DNA of 30,838 nucleotides, from the IMG/VR virus record IMGVR_UViG_3300012936_000093, positions 1 through 30,838 of that record. One strand, written 5' to 3'. The translations under genes and the position numbers were made by a program. The stretch's first letter is position 1. Each line of letters begins with the position of its first letter. Below, piece after piece: positions 2,753 to 15,856 of the stretch. The notes beneath the pieces were generated by a model. The model was not told the DNA's origin and did no database searches. It worked only from the letters and a program-made list of their open reading frames with translations. Origin of the DNA: a virus.

Positions 2753-3346
2753 TTACGATAGATTCCTATTTCTTGTTTCCTCAACAAGTTTAGAAACAGC
2801 CCATTTAGAGTTTTTGGAAAGTTTATCGTATGTTTCCAAATCTTCTTTAAAGGCAAATGGTCTGTTCTTAACTTTGGTCATAAACTCTTCCTCTTCACCC
2901 ATCTTGAGATCTCCTACCTTGATGGTCTTGCCATAAGGGGGGAAATCATTACCCTCTCTAGTACCGATAAGGTAAGCACCTTTAGTACCCTGTGGGATGA
3001 TAAGGACAGAATCTTGTCCGTATTCCTCACCAAACGTTTTAATTGTGTTGATGAAGTCCGGATCGTCTCCTCTGTTAGAAACGAACAAACTTGCCTCTGA
3101 AACCTCCATAGCAGTAGGTTGGGTAAAGTTTTCGATGTATGAACCCTTTACCTTCGTTACTCCATAACCCTTTTTAAGGAGCACTGCCTTGAGGACTCTG
3201 TTGTTCTCGTAATTTTCTTCTTTGCTTCTTTCACCACGAAAACTTGTGATGATAGCACTATCGTGTTCCATCATATGCTTGTAAAGTCTAGACAGAGATG
3301 ACTCTGCTAAAAATTCTCTCCAGTTTTCGTAAATCTTTTTTGTCAT
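2753..3346 (-). CDS. DUF3293-like protein (197 aa), N-terminal WREFL motif
   Basis: The protein reads MTKKIYENWREFLAESS, then a region DSAIITSFRGERSKEENYENNRVLKAVLLKKGYGVTKVKG. This is the pattern of the DUF3293 family (an AIIT strand, N-x2-L-x2-L helix, G-[YF]-x-V-x-x-V-x-G strand). A second conserved-looking part follows: EASLFVSNRG, FGEEYGQDSVLIIPQGTKGAYLIGT. The biochemical role of the family is not known to me. The short NWREFL segment at the extreme N-terminus recurs on many marine T4-like phage proteins, which is recollection rather than a search. The ATG at 3344-3346 is chosen over a TTG at 3361 because it forms an ATGA overlap with the GroES stop and has GAGG 7 nt upstream. Confidence 0.7.
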   Translation of the reverse strand: MTKKIYENWREFLAESSLSRLYKHMMEHDSAIITSFRGERSKEENYENNRVLKAVLLKKGYGVTKVKGSYIENFTQPTAMEVSEASLFVSNRGDDPDFINTIKTFGEEYGQDSVLIIPQGTKGAYLIGTREGNDFPPYGKTIKVGDLKMGEEEEFMTKVKNRPFAFKEDLETYDKLSKNSKWAVSKLVEETRNRNLS

Positions 3347-3615
3347 TTCGTTACCTCGCAAAGAACGTAATTTGCTTGTAATAAATAGTGTTCTTCGCCT
3401 TCAATATCCACTTTGCGTAACATATTGGACTCTGCCACAATGTGATTGCCTACAGAAAATTCTTCTTCGACAGACTTGTGAACTGCCAATATCTTTGCAA
3501 TTGTGAACTCTTTCATTGGCCTGTAGTCGTCAGGAAGAAGGACGGCAGGTTTATCATCCTGCTCGTCTTCTACCAATTCAACTAATAGGTGTCTGTTTTT
3601 GGGAGATACTTTCAT
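3343..3615 (-). CDS. GroES-like co-chaperonin
   Basis: A 90-residue Cpn10 protein: N-terminal strand RHLLVELVED, the characteristic VLLPDDYRPMKEFTIAKILAV segment, VGNHIVAESNMLRKV, and C-terminal HYLLQANYVLCEV closing the barrel. The length matches GroES (about 95 aa). The region that forms the GroEL-binding mobile loop (about residues 16-26, EDEQDDKPAVL) is short and acidic compared with bacterial GroES. Phage Cpn10 proteins such as T4 gp31 replace host GroES on host GroEL to fold phage proteins, classically the major capsid protein. No GroEL gene is in the window. ATGA overlaps link it to both neighbours. Confidence 0.85.
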   Translation of the reverse strand: MKVSPKNRHLLVELVEDEQDDKPAVLLPDDYRPMKEFTIAKILAVHKSVEEEFSVGNHIVAESNMLRKVDIEGEEHYLLQANYVLCEVTK

Positions 3616-8401: not shown

Positions 8402-8656
8402 TCACTCCTCTAGCATTAACTTTTCGTATCTGCCATCTTTCTTCATTTCTTCAATGTGCTTCTTCATCCCATCAATGTTGTCATCGCAGAGAGTTAGCCA
8501 ACTCTTTTTGTAATAGATTCTTTCCCAACATTCTTCTAATAGTTTCCTATCTTTCGAGATTTTGTTACGAAGTTCGTTAATTGTCTTCCTTAGTCCGGCA
8601 GATTCGTAACTGAGTCTGTCGTACTCTGCTCTATAAAAGTGTTCATTGCTTTCCAT
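8402..8656 (-). CDS. Small coiled-coil protein of unknown function
   Basis: 84 residues from MESNEHFYRAEYDRLSYESAGLRKTINELR onward, with heptad-like hydrophobic spacing and alternating Lys/Glu, so mostly helix and likely coiled coil. A WERIYYKKSWLTLCDDN segment separates two helical halves. I recognise no family. Start at 8654-8656 has GGAG 6 nt upstream, inside the end of the methylase gene (14-nt overlap); an ATG at 8683 gives nine more residues but lacks a good ribosome-binding site. The stop GAGGAGTGA contains the ribosome-binding site of the lipoprotein gene. Confidence 0.65.
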   Translation of the reverse strand: MESNEHFYRAEYDRLSYESAGLRKTINELRNKISKDRKLLEECWERIYYKKSWLTLCDDNIDGMKKHIEEMKKDGRYEKLMLEE

Positions 8657-9518
8657 ACTCTTCTCCGTAAAATCTTTTTTCATACTTTCTGTTTGGTACT
8701 GTTTTCATATCCTCGTGTATCTGAGTTGTTAGTTGTGGCTCCTCCCTCTCTACAATGGAGGAACATTTTGATATCCTATTTTTTGCGAGTTTGAAGTATT
8801 CTAAATCCTTCTCCACTCCAATGAAATGTCTTCCTGTCATCTTGCATGAAACTCCGGTAGATCCAGAACCCATCGTAAAATCAAGAACTGTATCTCCTGG
8901 ATCACTATATGTCATGATAATCCAATTTAGCAGATTGGTTGGTTTTTGAGTTGGGTGCACCGTTTGTTGAGCGGAAAAGTTCCTAGAAGCATGCAAGATG
9001 CTTTTTGGATATCTAGTTCCCGAATTCGACATGTGCATAGTCTTCTCATTTCCGAAACCGTATCCGTGACTGTTTTTCCCAGTACCGTACCCATCCTCTG
9101 ATTTACAATTCCTAACGTATGGTTTTCCACTCTCCATAATAGGGTTGTATTTTGCTCTTTTTCCATTTTTTGTAAAAATTATAATATTTTCATGAACCTT
9201 GAGGGGTCGGTATTTAGCTAATCCAGGGGAACCACATTTGTTTTTGTTCCATACCAACTCGTATTTAAACCAATTTTCTTTTGAGCAAATCAATTTAGAT
9301 GTGAAAGGTTGAGATCCAAAGAAAATAATATTAGAACCGTCTTTGACAACCCGATCCAGTTCTTCCCATATCCTATCAAACGGAAGAACACTGTCCCACT
9401 TAATCGAAGTTGTCCCATAGGGAGGGTCACATAAAACCATATCCACCGAGTTGGGTTCCAAGAGACTCAATTGTTCCAGTGCATCTGAATTATAGATCGA
9501 TGTTTTTACTTTTTTCAT
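8643..9518 (-). CDS. DNA methyltransferase, beta class (N6-adenine or N4-cytosine)
   Basis: 291 residues. Catalytic motif IV LCDPPYGT (DPPY at 31-34) comes before the AdoMet-binding motif I DFTMGSGSTG (about 213-222), with HPTQKP (188-193) just ahead of it; this circular order (IV, then X, then I) defines the beta class. ELVWNKNKCGSPGLAKYRPLKVHENIIIF matches the region after the target recognition part. DPPY points to an exocyclic amino group target, more often N6-adenine. The recognition sequence is not readable from the sequence. No restriction endonuclease lies next to it, so self-protection against host restriction is the likely role. The ATG has GAGGAG upstream, and the gene follows tRNA-Arg with a 15-nt gap, suggesting co-transcription with the tRNAs. 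Confidence 0.9.
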   Translation of the reverse strand: MKKVKTSIYNSDALEQLSLLEPNSVDMVLCDPPYGTTSIKWDSVLPFDRIWEELDRVVKDGSNIIFFGSQPFTSKLICSKENWFKYELVWNKNKCGSPGLAKYRPLKVHENIIIFTKNGKRAKYNPIMESGKPYVRNCKSEDGYGTGKNSHGYGFGNEKTMHMSNSGTRYPKSILHASRNFSAQQTVHPTQKPTNLLNWIIMTYSDPGDTVLDFTMGSGSTGVSCKMTGRHFIGVEKDLEYFKLAKNRISKCSSIVEREEPQLTTQIHEDMKTVPNRKYEKRFYGEEYGKQ

Positions 9519-9765: not shown

Positions 9766-9846
9766 TGGAAGGGGTTGCCGGAGTTGCACCGGCTGTAACA
9801 TATCGTCTATGCTTTAGATACCGTCGTATCTCTTGCTTTTACCCCC
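9766..9846 (-). ncRNA. CCA-ended tRNA-like cloverleaf with non-canonical D and anticodon arms
   Basis: 81 nt lying one base after tRNA-Thr. Its 3' half is tRNA-like: a perfect T arm GCCGG-TGCAACT-CCGGC, acceptor strand AACCCCT, discriminator T and CCA. The 5' end GGGGGTA pairs with the acceptor over six bases with one A.A mismatch at the base. The rest is odd: eight unpaired bases (AAAGCAAG), a six-bp hairpin AGATAC-GACG-GTATCT where a D arm should be, and a five-bp hairpin AGCAT-AGACGAT-ATGTT where the anticodon arm should be. That 7-nt loop lacks U33 and would read ACG (Arg). U8 is also missing. It could be a divergent tRNA, a decayed tRNA, or a tRNA mimic. No functional tRNA identity is claimed. 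Confidence 0.6.
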
Positions 9847-9847
9847 A

Positions 9848-9922
9848 TGGAGCTGGTGAAGGGATTTGAACCCCCAACCCCCTGCTTACAAGGCAGATGC
9901 TCTACCGTTGAGCTACACCAGC
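9848..9922 (-). tRNA. tRNA-Thr (anticodon UGU)
   Basis: 75-nt complete cloverleaf with encoded CCA. Acceptor GCTGGTG/CACCAGC (all Watson-Crick), D arm GCTC/GAGC, anticodon arm TCTGC-CTTGTAA-GCAGG (anticodon TGT), T arm GGGGG-TTCAAAT-CCCTT with two G.U pairs, discriminator T and CCA. It decodes ACA. The tRNA starts 6 nt after the stop of the preceding small gene, so it is processed from the same transcript. Confidence 0.96.
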
Positions 9923-10371: not shown

Positions 10372-10590
10372 CTATTCATTAATAAAGTCTGGTGGAGTTA
10401 TCTTTCCTCTCATATATTCCAGCACATCAAACACACCACCATATGTAACAACTATATCATACACCTCATCATTGTACTTGTCAAGCATTTCTTTTCGATA
10501 TTTCTCAACATCCTGCTTTCCTCTTGCTGTGTGTCTTTCAACGATAGAAAGAGATCCTCTTTTGATGACGACGATAGAATTTACTGCCAT
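10372..10590 (-). CDS. Small protein of unknown function (72 aa)
   Basis: Begins MAVNSIVVIKRGSLSIVERHTARGKQD and ends MRGKITPPDFINE. A beta strand pair at the N-terminus is followed by a charged helix (VEKYRKEMLDKYNDEVYDIVV). No family is recognised. The start overlaps the end of the Dam-type methylase gene by 10 nt with a GGGGAA upstream, so it is probably translated by coupling. Confidence 0.6.
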   Translation of the reverse strand: MAVNSIVVIKRGSLSIVERHTARGKQDVEKYRKEMLDKYNDEVYDIVVTYGGVFDVLEYMRGKITPPDFINE

Positions 10591-11582
10591 TCATAGTTCC
10601 CCACTAACAACTCTTTCTTCATAGTCATCTCTCTCTGTCCTTCTTCGTTAGTTTTAAAGCTCATTCCATAACGGATATCCCAGACCTCTTGATTATAGTG
10701 AGCATATCTTTCTTTGAGAACATCTGAATTATTATAAGTCATATTCCAACTTACACTTGATTTATCTAAATCTTCAACGAGTTTTTCGTGAGGGAAACCG
10801 ACATGCATATTGCCGTCTTGGCCATAGAGTGCATTTGTTGCCTCGTTTGGTTTAGACTTTTTCTTCTTGAGAATATCATACGGAGGGTCAAGGAATACAT
10901 ATACATCCTTATCTCCCGTCAGTAATTCAGAGTAATCTAAGTTTGTTATCTTGGTACCCTGGATGAGTTCTGAAACTTGGGGCAATTTGTTGATACTGGT
11001 ATCTGTAAAGTTCTGGATAGATGCCTGCGGGGAGAAAGAACTGTCTAGTTTCTTCTTTGTATTCTTGGTGTTTCCACTTCTTCCTACTTCGGAGATGCCA
11101 GAGTAAGAACACTTGTTGATGATGTAGAAGTAGTGTGCTACCTCTAATTCTGTCTCAGCATCACCGATATTAGCAATTGCTTCCTTGAAGAGTTCTCTTG
11201 CCTTGACCGTACCCTCTTTGATAAGTTCGGAACGATTGGGATACTTTACCTTCTTCTTGTCCTTCATAGCTAAGAAAGCATCTTGTGATTCCCTGTACTC
11301 GTCTTTCGACTTTTGTATCATCTTCTGTAGGTCTGTCGGATTATCTCTCAAGACTTTCCAGAAGCAGTAAAGGTGATAGTATTTATCATTGATCCAGAAC
11401 TTTGCTTCTGGATATTTTTGCTTCATCTCGATAAACATTGAACCTCCACCAAGGAATGGTTCACGAAACTCTGTGAATTTTTTTGGTGTCTTTGTGGTGA
11501 GGTACTTCAATGCTCTACTTTTACCACCTGGATATCTCAGGGGACTCTTGATTGGATGTAGTTTAACGTCTTTGTTACTCAT
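10581..11582 (-). CDS. Dam-type adenine-N6 DNA methyltransferase (D12 class, alpha group)
   Basis: 333 residues. Motif X SPLRYPGGKSR (13-23) and motif I EPFLGGGSM (41-49) come first and the catalytic VFLDPPYDI (DPPY at 232-235) comes later, the alpha order of the D12/Dam family. INKCSYSGISEVGRSGN in the middle fits the family region after the target recognition part. The product methylates the N6 of adenine, perhaps in GATC, but the target is not deducible by eye. The start overlaps the UvsX stop by 8 nt. With the beta-class enzyme at 8643-9518 this gives two unrelated adenine-type methylases within 3 kb and no cognate nuclease, so anti-restriction or marking of phage DNA is likely. Confidence 0.92.
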   Translation of the reverse strand: MSNKDVKLHPIKSPLRYPGGKSRALKYLTTKTPKKFTEFREPFLGGGSMFIEMKQKYPEAKFWINDKYYHLYCFWKVLRDNPTDLQKMIQKSKDEYRESQDAFLAMKDKKKVKYPNRSELIKEGTVKARELFKEAIANIGDAETELEVAHYFYIINKCSYSGISEVGRSGNTKNTKKKLDSSFSPQASIQNFTDTSINKLPQVSELIQGTKITNLDYSELLTGDKDVYVFLDPPYDILKKKKSKPNEATNALYGQDGNMHVGFPHEKLVEDLDKSSVSWNMTYNNSDVLKERYAHYNQEVWDIRYGMSFKTNEEGQREMTMKKELLVGNYEWQ

Positions 11583-13855: not shown

Positions 13856-14688
13856 TTTCTCTCCTGTATTGTACTGGTTTTTGCTACTACGATAACCTGT
13901 GGTTCCTCGTAAGTTGTTTCATGAACACTATAAGTTGCTACTACCTCACCTCCCTTAAGAGCATTTACTTGGTTTCTGATTTTCTTAATGAGTGACCCGT
14001 CGGTCTTCAACTCTTCGCTATTGATACCATAATAATAGTGCTTTCTGCGAATATTTTTAAGGGGGAAAAACAACTTTTCTTGCTGTTTCTCTATATCCAC
14101 CAAACCATATGTGCCAATATTCTCTAGTGGATTACTATCACCCCTGGTTTCCGCAACAGGTTCTGTGTTGGAAAAATAATCTACCAACTGAACTGTGGTG
14201 GAAACAGTGTCTTTCAACACATTGTAATAGTTCATCAAAGATACTTCACCAATTGCTTTCTCCACTTCGTCTGACTTAAACACATAAAAGTTTCTCAATA
14301 GACCAGAACGAGCATACTCTTGTAAAACATGAAAAGCAACATTTTCGTTTTTTCCAACAACACCTTTAAGGTCTATCTCCTCTGGGTGGATGTAAAAAAC
14401 ATTCGTGTTCTTATGATCCATGCCCTGTAGAACTTTTAAAGAAGCTGCTGATGCAGGGTCTCTGCCTTCTACAAAGAAGTGACTATCACCTCGCACTTGC
14501 TTTAGGAAGTAATTCATAGAAGGACACTTATCTTCAATCTTTTCCGGATCTGAGTGTTTTACCAACCCCCTGGAATTCTTTGTTTTAGAGAGATCAAAGT
14601 CAATCTTGTATGAATTATATTGAGATTGATTTGAGAATCTGTCTGATATATCACAGGAGAACTTTCCTAATCCTACTACACTAACCAA
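13852..14688 (-). CDS. Putative tubulin/FtsZ-fold-like protein, TTG start
   Basis: 278 residues. N-terminus MVSVVGLGKFSCDISDRFS followed by NSYKID resembles the first strand and nucleotide loop of tubulin/FtsZ-type proteins (V-x-G-[LV]-G-x-x-x). HFFVEGRDPASAASLKVL is at the place of the glycine-rich tubulin loop but lacks GGGTGxG. TNVFYIHPEEIDLKG, NENVAFHVLQEYARSGLL and NFYVFKSDEVEKAIG, then NYYNVLKDTVSTTVQLVDYF, follow the FtsZ order of strand-helix-strand and long core helix. So it may be a degenerate, perhaps non-hydrolysing, member; this is by eye. TTG at 14686-14688 is the start because AGGAG lies 7 nt upstream, inside the polymerase stop (8-nt overlap). The C-terminal 60 residues are basic and beta-rich. 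Confidence 0.55.
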   Translation of the reverse strand: MVSVVGLGKFSCDISDRFSNQSQYNSYKIDFDLSKTKNSRGLVKHSDPEKIEDKCPSMNYFLKQVRGDSHFFVEGRDPASAASLKVLQGMDHKNTNVFYIHPEEIDLKGVVGKNENVAFHVLQEYARSGLLRNFYVFKSDEVEKAIGEVSLMNYYNVLKDTVSTTVQLVDYFSNTEPVAETRGDSNPLENIGTYGLVDIEKQQEKLFFPLKNIRRKHYYYGINSEELKTDGSLIKKIRNQVNALKGGEVVATYSVHETTYEEPQVIVVAKTSTIQERK

Positions 14689-15856
14689 TTTTCAACTCCT
14701 TTAGTTTACCAAAGTTTTTACCTGCACTAATCTTACAGGGAAAGACACCCAATGGGGTTTTAGAAAAAGTGTCACGAATATCGTAAATGAGATCTCTGTC
14801 TTCGTCACAGAAGTCGATCACGATAGAATCGTGTAAACAAAATTTTACACTACTTTTACGATCTTTTAAGAGGTGGAAGATTTTTAGAGTGTTGCGAAGT
14901 GCAATCTCTGCGGCAGTGGACTGAATCGTGTAATTCACCGCATGGAACTCGTCCGACTTTATCTTCCTTCCGTACAGATTTACAATCTCTTCTCTTTCCG
15001 GATTGAAGTGCTTTCTTTTCACGTTTTTCACGTTGTACAATGCTTCTAATTCTCCAACGTCGTAATTCTTGCTTCCATACATATAAGCAATAACGGATCT
15101 CTTTGCTTGTTGCCTGTCCGTTTTTAAGAAAGTCGAGTTCCATTTATGTAGGTCTCCTTGCGGCTGGTCGTGTCCTGATAATCCAAGGAAAACACGCAGT
15201 TCCGCAGCATTGTAATCAATTTCCAAAATCCAGTCATTGGTGGGAAGCACAACGTCCCTCAACTCTTTATCTAGTGTCATAATTGGAAAAGAAGACGGAG
15301 TTACAGACAATCTCCCGGTGACACTAGAGAACTGCTTGTACTGAACTTTGTTTTTTGTTTTCATGTCTCTTATCTTCTTTTTATAGTAATACCTGCTTAT
15401 GAATTCATGGTCTAGTTTTATGGGTGCTGTAGACATCTCTTGTAACATCTCATGTAATCTGCAATCATAATCATAGTTCTCTGTCTTGGGAGTGTTTTCA
15501 TAAATGTGCTTCATAATCTGCTCACGAACAGAATAGTAATCCAGGAGAAATTGTTGAGGGACAAGATCAAAAAAGCAGTTCTCGTCTAGACTGACTTGTG
15601 AAGTGACAAAAGACTTATAGAAGGCTCTTAATTTAGAGTCTACCCTCTCGAAGTCCTCCTTGAGTTCTAAGGGGCAAACTTCCGCTATGCTATCTGCCCT
15701 AGCAAGGACAGAGATATACTCATACAGACCCGAGGAGAGAGTCTCAGAGTGCTTCCAAGTTACCTTCATCTCGTCAGGTTGATTATCATAATATAATTTA
15801 CCGTTTTGGTAGAAACCGAAACAGTCTTTTTTGTTGTCAAGTACACTAAAGTACAA
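14681..15856 (-). CDS. Family A DNA polymerase, polymerase domain only, TTG start
   Basis: 391 residues carrying all family A motifs: TGRLS (180-184), motif A EIDYNAAELR (catalytic Asp 214), motif B R-x3-K-x7-YG (Arg 248, Lys 252, Tyr 260), NYTIQSTAAEIAL (308-320, the Q[GS]TAAD helix), and motif C CLHDSIVID (His 342, Asp 343; Ser replaces the usual Glu). The part before motif A (about 175 residues) has no DEDD/exonuclease motif I (DxE), so a proofreading domain is absent here. T4 itself uses a family B polymerase. The fingers segment between motifs A and B is short (about 30 residues). Start is a TTG at 15854-15856, two bases after the previous stop, with AGGA 7 nt upstream; no ATG or GTG is better placed. 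Confidence 0.9.
   Translation of the reverse strand: MYFSVLDNKKDCFGFYQNGKLYYDNQPDEMKVTWKHSETLSSGLYEYISVLARADSIAEVCPLELKEDFERVDSKLRAFYKSFVTSQVSLDENCFFDLVPQQFLLDYYSVREQIMKHIYENTPKTENYDYDCRLHEMLQEMSTAPIKLDHEFISRYYYKKKIRDMKTKNKVQYKQFSSVTGRLSVTPSSFPIMTLDKELRDVVLPTNDWILEIDYNAAELRVFLGLSGHDQPQGDLHKWNSTFLKTDRQQAKRSVIAYMYGSKNYDVGELEALYNVKNVKRKHFNPEREEIVNLYGRKIKSDEFHAVNYTIQSTAAEIALRNTLKIFHLLKDRKSSVKFCLHDSIVIDFCDEDRDLIYDIRDTFSKTPLGVFPCKISAGKNFGKLKELKIG

What the first reader, a model, noticed from the sequence alone, without database searches (positions are those of the whole stretch)
9766..9846. Non-canonical, CCA-ended cloverleaf in the tRNA cluster
One base after tRNA-Thr lies an 81-nt element whose T arm, acceptor strand, discriminator and CCA are intact, but whose D arm is replaced by an 8-nt linker plus a perfect 6-bp hairpin with a tetraloop, and whose 'anticodon' loop lacks U33. 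U8 is absent. Conservation of pairing in all four arms despite loss of the usual tRNA bases argues against simple decay and suggests a tRNA mimic (for example a decoy or an aminoacylated or processed RNA), or a tRNA with a rewired core. The pairing is seen directly; the role is inference.
Basis: partly seen in the sequence, partly recalled or inferred. Interest (0 to 1): 0.75.

Follow-up and report, generated by a model that had tools for sequence, protein, structure and literature searches.

The report
Non-decoding tRNA-like RNA beside phage tRNA
Beside a normal tRNA gene, a phage carries an 81-base RNA gene with the amino-acid-accepting half of a tRNA but two simple hairpins where the code-reading half should be, so it probably does something other than translation, as phage T4's long-unexplained RNA C may do.

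Summary
The observation largely holds. On the minus strand (9846..9766), one base after a CCA-encoding tRNA-Thr, lies an 81-nt sequence that folds as described (-28.2 kcal/mol, z = -3.6; the two genuine tRNAs give -1.9 and -1.2). Corrections: the T loop is UGCAACU (G55 replaces U55), and the acceptor has a G1-U72 wobble and an A7-A66 mismatch. It is not a tRNA by ARAGORN or Rfam down to E = 10, nor any other Rfam family. No homologue turned up in phage and plasmid records, in pattern scans of IMG/VR and GTDB, or in covariance searches; the one syntenic relative (L016) lacks both tRNA-Thr and the element. Conservation is therefore untested and pseudogene decay cannot be excluded.

Best reading: a non-decoding RNA with a tRNA top half, excised with the tRNAs and carrying a CCA end. 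The closest known case is T4 RNA C (species 1, function unknown). I show that RNA C has an exact tRNA top half, an encoded U-CCA end in two Klebsiella phages, and two non-tRNA arms joined by a covarying kissing loop. The window element shares that plan, but neither its sequence nor its kissing loop, and sits in a myovirus that is not T4-type.

The parts
9766..9846 (-). the whole 81-nt tRNA-like element
   Evidence: sequence; fold -28.2 kcal/mol, z -3.6; covariance model R1 built on it
9840..9846 (-). acceptor 5' strand GGGGGUA
   Evidence: pairs with 9770-9776: G-U wobble, four G-C, U-A, then A-A mismatch
9832..9839 (-). 8-nt linker AAAGCAAG in place of U8-A9 and the D arm
   Evidence: sequence and fold
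9816..9831 (-). arm 1: 6-bp hairpin AGAUAC-GACG-GUAUCU
   Evidence: pair probabilities 0.94-1.0
9797..9813 (-). arm 2: 6-bp hairpin AGCAUA-GACGA-UAUGUU, one G-U
   Evidence: pair probabilities 0.67-0.85; 11 of 18 positions shared with arm 1 in an 18-nt register, significance not established
9777..9793 (-). T arm GCCGG-UGCAACU-CCGGC; loop has G at position 55
   Evidence: pair probabilities 0.997-1.0
9770..9776 (-). acceptor 3' strand AACCCCU
9766..9769 (-). discriminator U73 and encoded CCA
   Evidence: sequence
9848..9922 (-). tRNA-Thr(TGT), CCA encoded, one base upstream of the element
   Evidence: ARAGORN, Rfam RF00005 71.4 bits
9534..9610 (-). tRNA-Arg(TCT), CCA encoded, downstream in the same transcription direction
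   Evidence: ARAGORN, Rfam RF00005 70 bits
9611..9739 (-). 42-aa ORF whose ATG lies 26 nt after the element; shared with L016 (71% identical)

Best explanation
A phage-encoded, non-decoding tRNA-like RNA. Transcribed on the minus strand with tRNA-Thr and tRNA-Arg, its tRNA top half (acceptor plus T arm plus CCA) lets the host's RNase P and 3' trimming enzymes cut it out as a discrete CCA-ended RNA of about 81 nt. Two hairpins with GACG-containing loops stand where the D and anticodon arms would be, so it cannot read codons in the normal way. It would act either by engaging tRNA-handling factors (RNase P, CCA enzyme, EF-Tu, a synthetase, or a tRNA-targeting nuclease) or by presenting the two hairpins on a stable scaffold. 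It is built like T4 RNA C but is not homologous to it. Shown: sequence, fold prediction, position, absence of any tRNA-model match. Inferred: transcription, processing, stability and role.
For: Strong, single predicted fold, better than the real tRNAs beside it. tRNA-specific layout in a tRNA cluster, one base after tRNA-Thr, with the encoded CCA that both neighbours also have. No tRNA, tmRNA or other Rfam match. A conserved precedent with the same plan: T4 RNA C, top half plus two non-tRNA arms, inside tRNA arrays, with U-CCA encoded in two Klebsiella phages and 31 of 54 pairs changed on both sides across 16 phages.
Against: Found once only; no homologue and absent from the syntenic relative L016, so no covariation and no sign of selection. 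The mismatch A7-A66, G1-U72 and G55 could be marks of decay. No expression data. The usual elbow partners G18/G19 are missing, so recognition by RNase P is not assured.
Confidence: 0.5

Rival explanations
1. Remnant of a tRNA gene: a tRNA (perhaps a tRNA-Gln, UGGGGUA..GCCAAG..) rearranged or decaying in the phage tRNA cluster. The inner hairpins arose by chance or by local duplication and nothing is selected.
For: Singleton, absent in L016. A7-A66 mismatch, G1-U72, G55. The best match of model R1 is an ordinary tRNA-Gln (26.2 bits), and tRNA-Gln ranks first among 243 phage tRNAs. Arms 1 and 2 share 11 of 18 positions, as a local duplication might leave.
Against: The tRNA-Gln score is not above a null with shuffled middle (13.5 against a 95% point of 14.9). 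Decay should break stems, but T stem, arm 1 and arm 2 pair fully and the fold is better than that of intact tRNAs. CCA kept.
Confidence: 0.33
2. A processing or leader element in cis: the tRNA-like fold serves as an RNase P and 3'-nuclease cutting mark that frees tRNA-Thr and sets the 5' end of the message for the 42-aa ORF downstream; the excised RNA itself has no role.
For: The element ends 26 nt before the ATG of an ORF conserved in L016, with AGGAG upstream of the ATG.
Against: L016 keeps the ORF without the element. tRNA-Thr already provides such a mark. No promoter or terminator evidence above chance.
Confidence: 0.11
3. A real decoding tRNA with a rewired core, for example an Arg tRNA with anticodon ACG read from an opened arm 2 (5-bp stem, loop AGACGAU).
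For: ARAGORN with its threshold lowered to 60% reports a tRNA-Arg(ACG) there.
Against: That call uses a different 5' end, and the same lax setting also calls a tRNA-Gln on the other strand. No U33, U8, D arm or G18/G19; no RF00005 match at E <= 10. Mitochondrial ARAGORN modes find nothing at default thresholds.
Confidence: 0.04

Closest known systems
Phage T4 RNA C (rnaC, species 1 RNA), conserved in Straboviridae, function unknown (PMC9697503, PMC3014915, PMC12685909)
   Same: tRNA top half (acceptor, T arm with 7-nt loop, U discriminator; CCA encoded in Klebsiella phages EI and MY02), two non-tRNA arms in place of D and anticodon arms, GACG in the loop of arm 1, location in a phage tRNA cluster.
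   Different: 141 against 81 nt; arm 1 is a long composite hairpin; arms joined by a kissing loop that the element lacks; no sequence or covariance match (R2 12.3 bits, below an ordinary tRNA-Arg at 15.2). Host phage is not T4-type.
Bacillus cereus pseudo-tRNA tRNA-Other (PMC3399842)
   Same: A tRNA-like element thought to act outside translation (abstract).
   Different: There a recognisable pseudo-tRNA flanking a genomic island and part of a larger regulatory RNA; here no tRNA model match and a phage tRNA cluster.
tmRNA and viral 3' tRNA-like structures
   Same: tRNA top half combined with non-tRNA parts.
   Different: No covariance match for the element itself, no tag reading frame identified, no pseudoknotted acceptor.
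Ordinary phage tRNAs that replace tRNAs cut by host defences (PMC10264068, PMC11555353)
   Same: Location among phage tRNA genes; CCA end.
   Different: Those are decoding tRNAs; this has no anticodon arm of tRNA type.

Membership tests
Canonical tRNA (RF00005) | match to the tRNA covariance model or a tRNA caller at normal thresholds | tested here: not met
   ARAGORN default; Rfam gathering and E <= 10
Canonical tRNA (RF00005) | anticodon arm with 7-nt loop and U33; D arm with G18/G19; U8 | tested here: not met
   sequence and fold
Canonical tRNA (RF00005) | 7-bp acceptor, 5-bp T stem with 7-nt T loop, discriminator, CCA | tested here: inconclusive
   layout present, but A7-A66 mismatch, G1-U72 wobble and G55
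T4 RNA C family | match to a covariance model of RNA C (R2, six phages) | tested here: not met
   12.3 bits, misaligned through tRNA-Thr; an ordinary tRNA-Arg scores 15.2
T4 RNA C family | 6-nt kissing interaction between the loops of arms 1 and 2 | tested here: not met
   element loops GACG and GACGA are not complementary; RNA C loops UUGACG/CGUCAA are, with two different compensatory changes
T4 RNA C family | tRNA top half plus two non-tRNA arms, inside a phage tRNA cluster | tested here: met
   a likeness of plan, not of descent
T4 RNA C family | accumulates as a discrete stable RNA in infection | not testable with these tools
   no RNA data for this phage
tRNA pseudogene | recognisable similarity to a particular tRNA beyond the top half | tested here: inconclusive
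   tRNA-Gln ranks first but not above a shuffled-middle null
tRNA pseudogene | stems broken by uncompensated changes | tested here: inconclusive
   one acceptor mismatch; T stem and both inner arms fully paired
tmRNA / viral tRNA-like structures | Rfam match | tested here: not met
   none on the 84-base stretch; only 11.6 bits to permuted tmRNA over 230 nt, E 3.4

The most novel reading that the evidence does not exclude
A new type of minimal phage tRNA mimic: a processed, CCA-ended RNA whose decoding half was replaced by two hairpins, used as a decoy or inhibitor of host tRNA-handling or tRNA-cutting enzymes, evolved independently of T4 RNA C on the same plan.
Probability: 0.2. Interest if true: 0.75.

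Novelty: new variant of a known kind. Interest (0 to 1): 0.45.

Why it matters
Why phages carry tRNAs is still debated (codon supply, or escape from tRNA-cutting defences: PMC10264068, PMC11555353). RNAs that keep only the half of a tRNA seen by processing and loading enzymes cannot serve codon supply, so they would help separate the two ideas. T4 RNA C has no assigned function (PMC3014915, PMC9697503); a second case on the same plan in a phage of another type would suggest a recurring strategy that tRNA annotation software passes over. The structure model of RNA C given here, with its kissing loop, can be tested directly in laboratory T4.

Tried and rejected
Homologue searches that led nowhere: exact 3'-half pattern in IMG/VR, 0 hits; linker plus loop pattern, 120 or more chance hits, none with arm 1 fully paired; tRNA-Thr 3' end followed by GGGGGT, 54 hits, none a tRNA-Thr by ARAGORN; T-arm pattern in GTDB genomes, 4 hits that do not look like tRNA-like elements; tRNA-Thr body pattern, 56 loci, no element; the 42-aa ORF, only L016's contig; blastn in phages and plasmids, nothing meaningful; R1 on whole records of 50 loci, two weak hits (E 0.07 and 0.19) not followed. 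Rejected: tmRNA remnant (I noticed UACGACGGU resembling the tmRNA 5' motif UUCGACGGG, but there is no covariance support); tRNA-Gln ancestry as proven (not above the null); membership of the RNA C family. My early assumption that the window phage is T4-type was dropped, and with it the wording in my notes: it has a family-A DNA polymerase and a DnaB helicase.

Full report
WHAT IS THERE. The element reads, on the minus strand 9846..9766, GGGGGUA AAAGCAAG AGAUACGACGGUAUCU AA AGCAUAGACGAUAUGUU ACA GCCGGUGCAACUCCGGC AACCCCU U CCA. It folds into acceptor, two hairpins and a T arm at -28.2 kcal/mol, z = -3.6, and the centroid equals the MFE structure. Pair probabilities are 0.94-1.0 in arm 1 and the T stem, 0.67-0.85 in arm 2 and 0.69-0.92 in the acceptor. 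The plus strand folds no better than shuffles (z -0.87). The neighbouring tRNA-Thr and tRNA-Arg give z of -1.9 and -1.2. Its phrase 'intact T arm and acceptor' needs correction: G stands at T-loop position 55, A7-A66 does not pair and G1-U72 is a wobble. The 3' acceptor strand could also pair with the GGGGGUU of tRNA-Thr's T arm (7 of 7), but tRNA-Thr's own fold needs that stretch.

IS IT A tRNA? ARAGORN at default settings finds only tRNA-Thr and tRNA-Arg, Rfam likewise. At E <= 10 on 84 bases only two short snoRNA matches far below their gathering scores appear. Mitochondrial ARAGORN modes find nothing at default thresholds; at 60% stringency it reports hits on both strands, including a tRNA-Arg(ACG) with a different 5' end. 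The element therefore lacks the features that let a tRNA read codons.

IS IT MORE THAN CHANCE? A descriptor (acceptor at least 6 of 7, T stem 5 of 5, T54/C56/A58, NCCA) run over 6.06 Mb (both strands) of phage loci returned, outside ARAGORN's 243 tRNAs, only 12 places. Several of these are odd tRNAs or what looks like a tmRNA 3' end. The inner 47 nt fold as well in 9 of 5000 dinucleotide shuffles; two perfect hairpins of 6 bp or more occur in 0 of 5000 shuffles but in 1.8% of 47-nt windows of this phage. So the whole is well above chance, while the two inner hairpins alone are only moderately surprising.

CONTEXT. The record is a 30,838-base IMG/VR fragment from a contractile-tailed phage with DnaB helicase, RecA/UvsX-like recombinase, family-A DNA polymerase, ribonucleotide reductase, tail sheath and tail tube. 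All the long ORFs and both tRNAs are on the minus strand, so the order of transcription would be tRNA-Thr, element, a 42-aa ORF, tRNA-Arg. The only syntenic relative, L016, shares the small ORF (71% identical), tRNA-Arg and genes around, but has neither tRNA-Thr nor the element; other sequence fills that slot. Thr plus element is thus an insertion in this lineage or a loss in L016.

HOMOLOGUES. None found: blastn in phage and plasmid collections, pattern scans of IMG/VR and GTDB, and covariance model R1 (built from this one sequence) on about 2.2 Mb of loci and on the whole records of 50 loci. The best R1 hit is an ordinary tRNA-Gln in L289 (26.2 bits). Alignment to 243 phage tRNAs also ranks that tRNA-Gln first, but the score does not exceed a null with a shuffled middle. 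Ancestry from a particular tRNA is therefore open, and covariation could not be tested. A model built from a single sequence and exact patterns reach only fairly close relatives, so absence of hits is not proof of absence.

THE CLOSEST KNOWN CASE. T4's tRNA cluster carries rnaC and rnaD, RNAs of unknown function (PMC9697503, where RNAC was validated by northern blot; PMC3014915; PMC12685909). I compared rnaC across 16 phages, mostly Straboviridae. It has tRNA top-half geometry: a 7-bp acceptor frame (with two U-U mismatches in 15 of 16 sequences), joined directly to a 5-bp T stem with a 7-nt loop, then U and ACA, or U and an encoded CCA in Klebsiella phages EI and MY02. In several phages it lies between annotated tRNA genes. 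Two non-tRNA arms replace the D and anticodon arms; 31 of 54 pairs show changes on both sides (shuffles: mean 19.6, none of 500 as high; slid controls 5 to 11). The alignment was fitted to the structure, which favours it, but an independent MAFFT alignment of six phages gives the same picture (22 pairs). The loops of the two arms are complementary over 6 nt and covary at two different positions: UUGACG/CGUCAA in most, UUGAUG/CAUCAA in fHe-Yen9-01, UUGGCG/CGCCAA in EI and MY02. A scan of Rfam finds no family for it. The window element follows the same plan but is not a member: model R2 gives it 12.3 bits, less than the ordinary tRNA-Arg of the same window (15.2), and its loops do not kiss. From memory, not checked here: species 1 RNA was sequenced in the 1970s and some tRNA-like features may have been described then.

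MECHANISM. Most likely the top half lets RNase P and 3' processing enzymes excise a CCA-ended RNA, which then engages tRNA-binding factors or displays its hairpins. RNase P and other factors read the tRNA elbow (PMC4810234), and the element lacks the usual G18/G19 partners; that the GC of the linker might pair with the GC of the T loop is a guess. Excision and role are inference. The main rival is an unselected tRNA remnant (0.33); a processing element for the small ORF (0.11) and a decoding tRNA (0.04) are less likely.

VERDICT. A real, well-folded, tRNA-like element without decoding features, found once. It is a new variant of a little-understood kind typified by T4 RNA C; its function, and even its expression, is unproven.

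Noticed in passing
L097:1406-1546 (T4 rnaC, minus strand) and homologues in L335-L339, L342-L351: T4 RNA C (species 1 RNA, function unknown) is a conserved tRNA-like RNA: tRNA top half, encoded U-CCA in Klebsiella phages EI and MY02, and a 6-nt kissing loop between its two non-tRNA arms that covaries at two positions (UUGACG/CGUCAA, UUGAUG/CAUCAA, UUGGCG/CGCCAA). No Rfam family matches it.
   Followed up: yes
L343:22-132, L347:76-213, L351:2-175: In three records the rnaC region is annotated as hypothetical protein genes (Citrobacter phages Ursula and NM4.3, Klebsiella phage EI), probably misannotations of the RNA.
   Followed up: no
L114:2157-2270: In a 328-kb viral contig with many tRNAs: a 114-nt CCA-ended element with 7 of 7 acceptor pairs and a perfect T arm (loop UUCAACU) but an 80-nt non-tRNA middle; no Rfam family at gathering score, fold z only -1.2, no blastn relative in phages.
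   Followed up: partly
L114:8371-8447: Odd tRNA-like gene missed by ARAGORN (Rfam tRNA 43.4 bits), with anticodon GCA reading and T loop UGCGAGG, that is G55 as in the window element, and no GG in the D loop.
   Followed up: partly
L313:7323-7414: What looks like the 3' end of a phage tmRNA (GGACGCGGGUUCAAUACCCGCCGCCUCCACCA).
   Followed up: no
window 2753-3361 (-): Protein matching the S-adenosylmethionine lyase family PF23780 (E 1.4e-14), a possible anti-restriction enzyme, in a phage that also has two DNA methyltransferase genes (8643-9518, 10581-11582).
   Followed up: no
window 14681-15856 (-): Family-A DNA polymerase match covering only part of the family in a 391-aa ORF, next to ORFs without any match; the polymerase may be split or very divergent.
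   Followed up: no
window 3343-3615 (-): 90-aa protein matching the Cpn10 co-chaperonin (E 2.7e-5), possibly a phage GroES-like protein.
   Followed up: no
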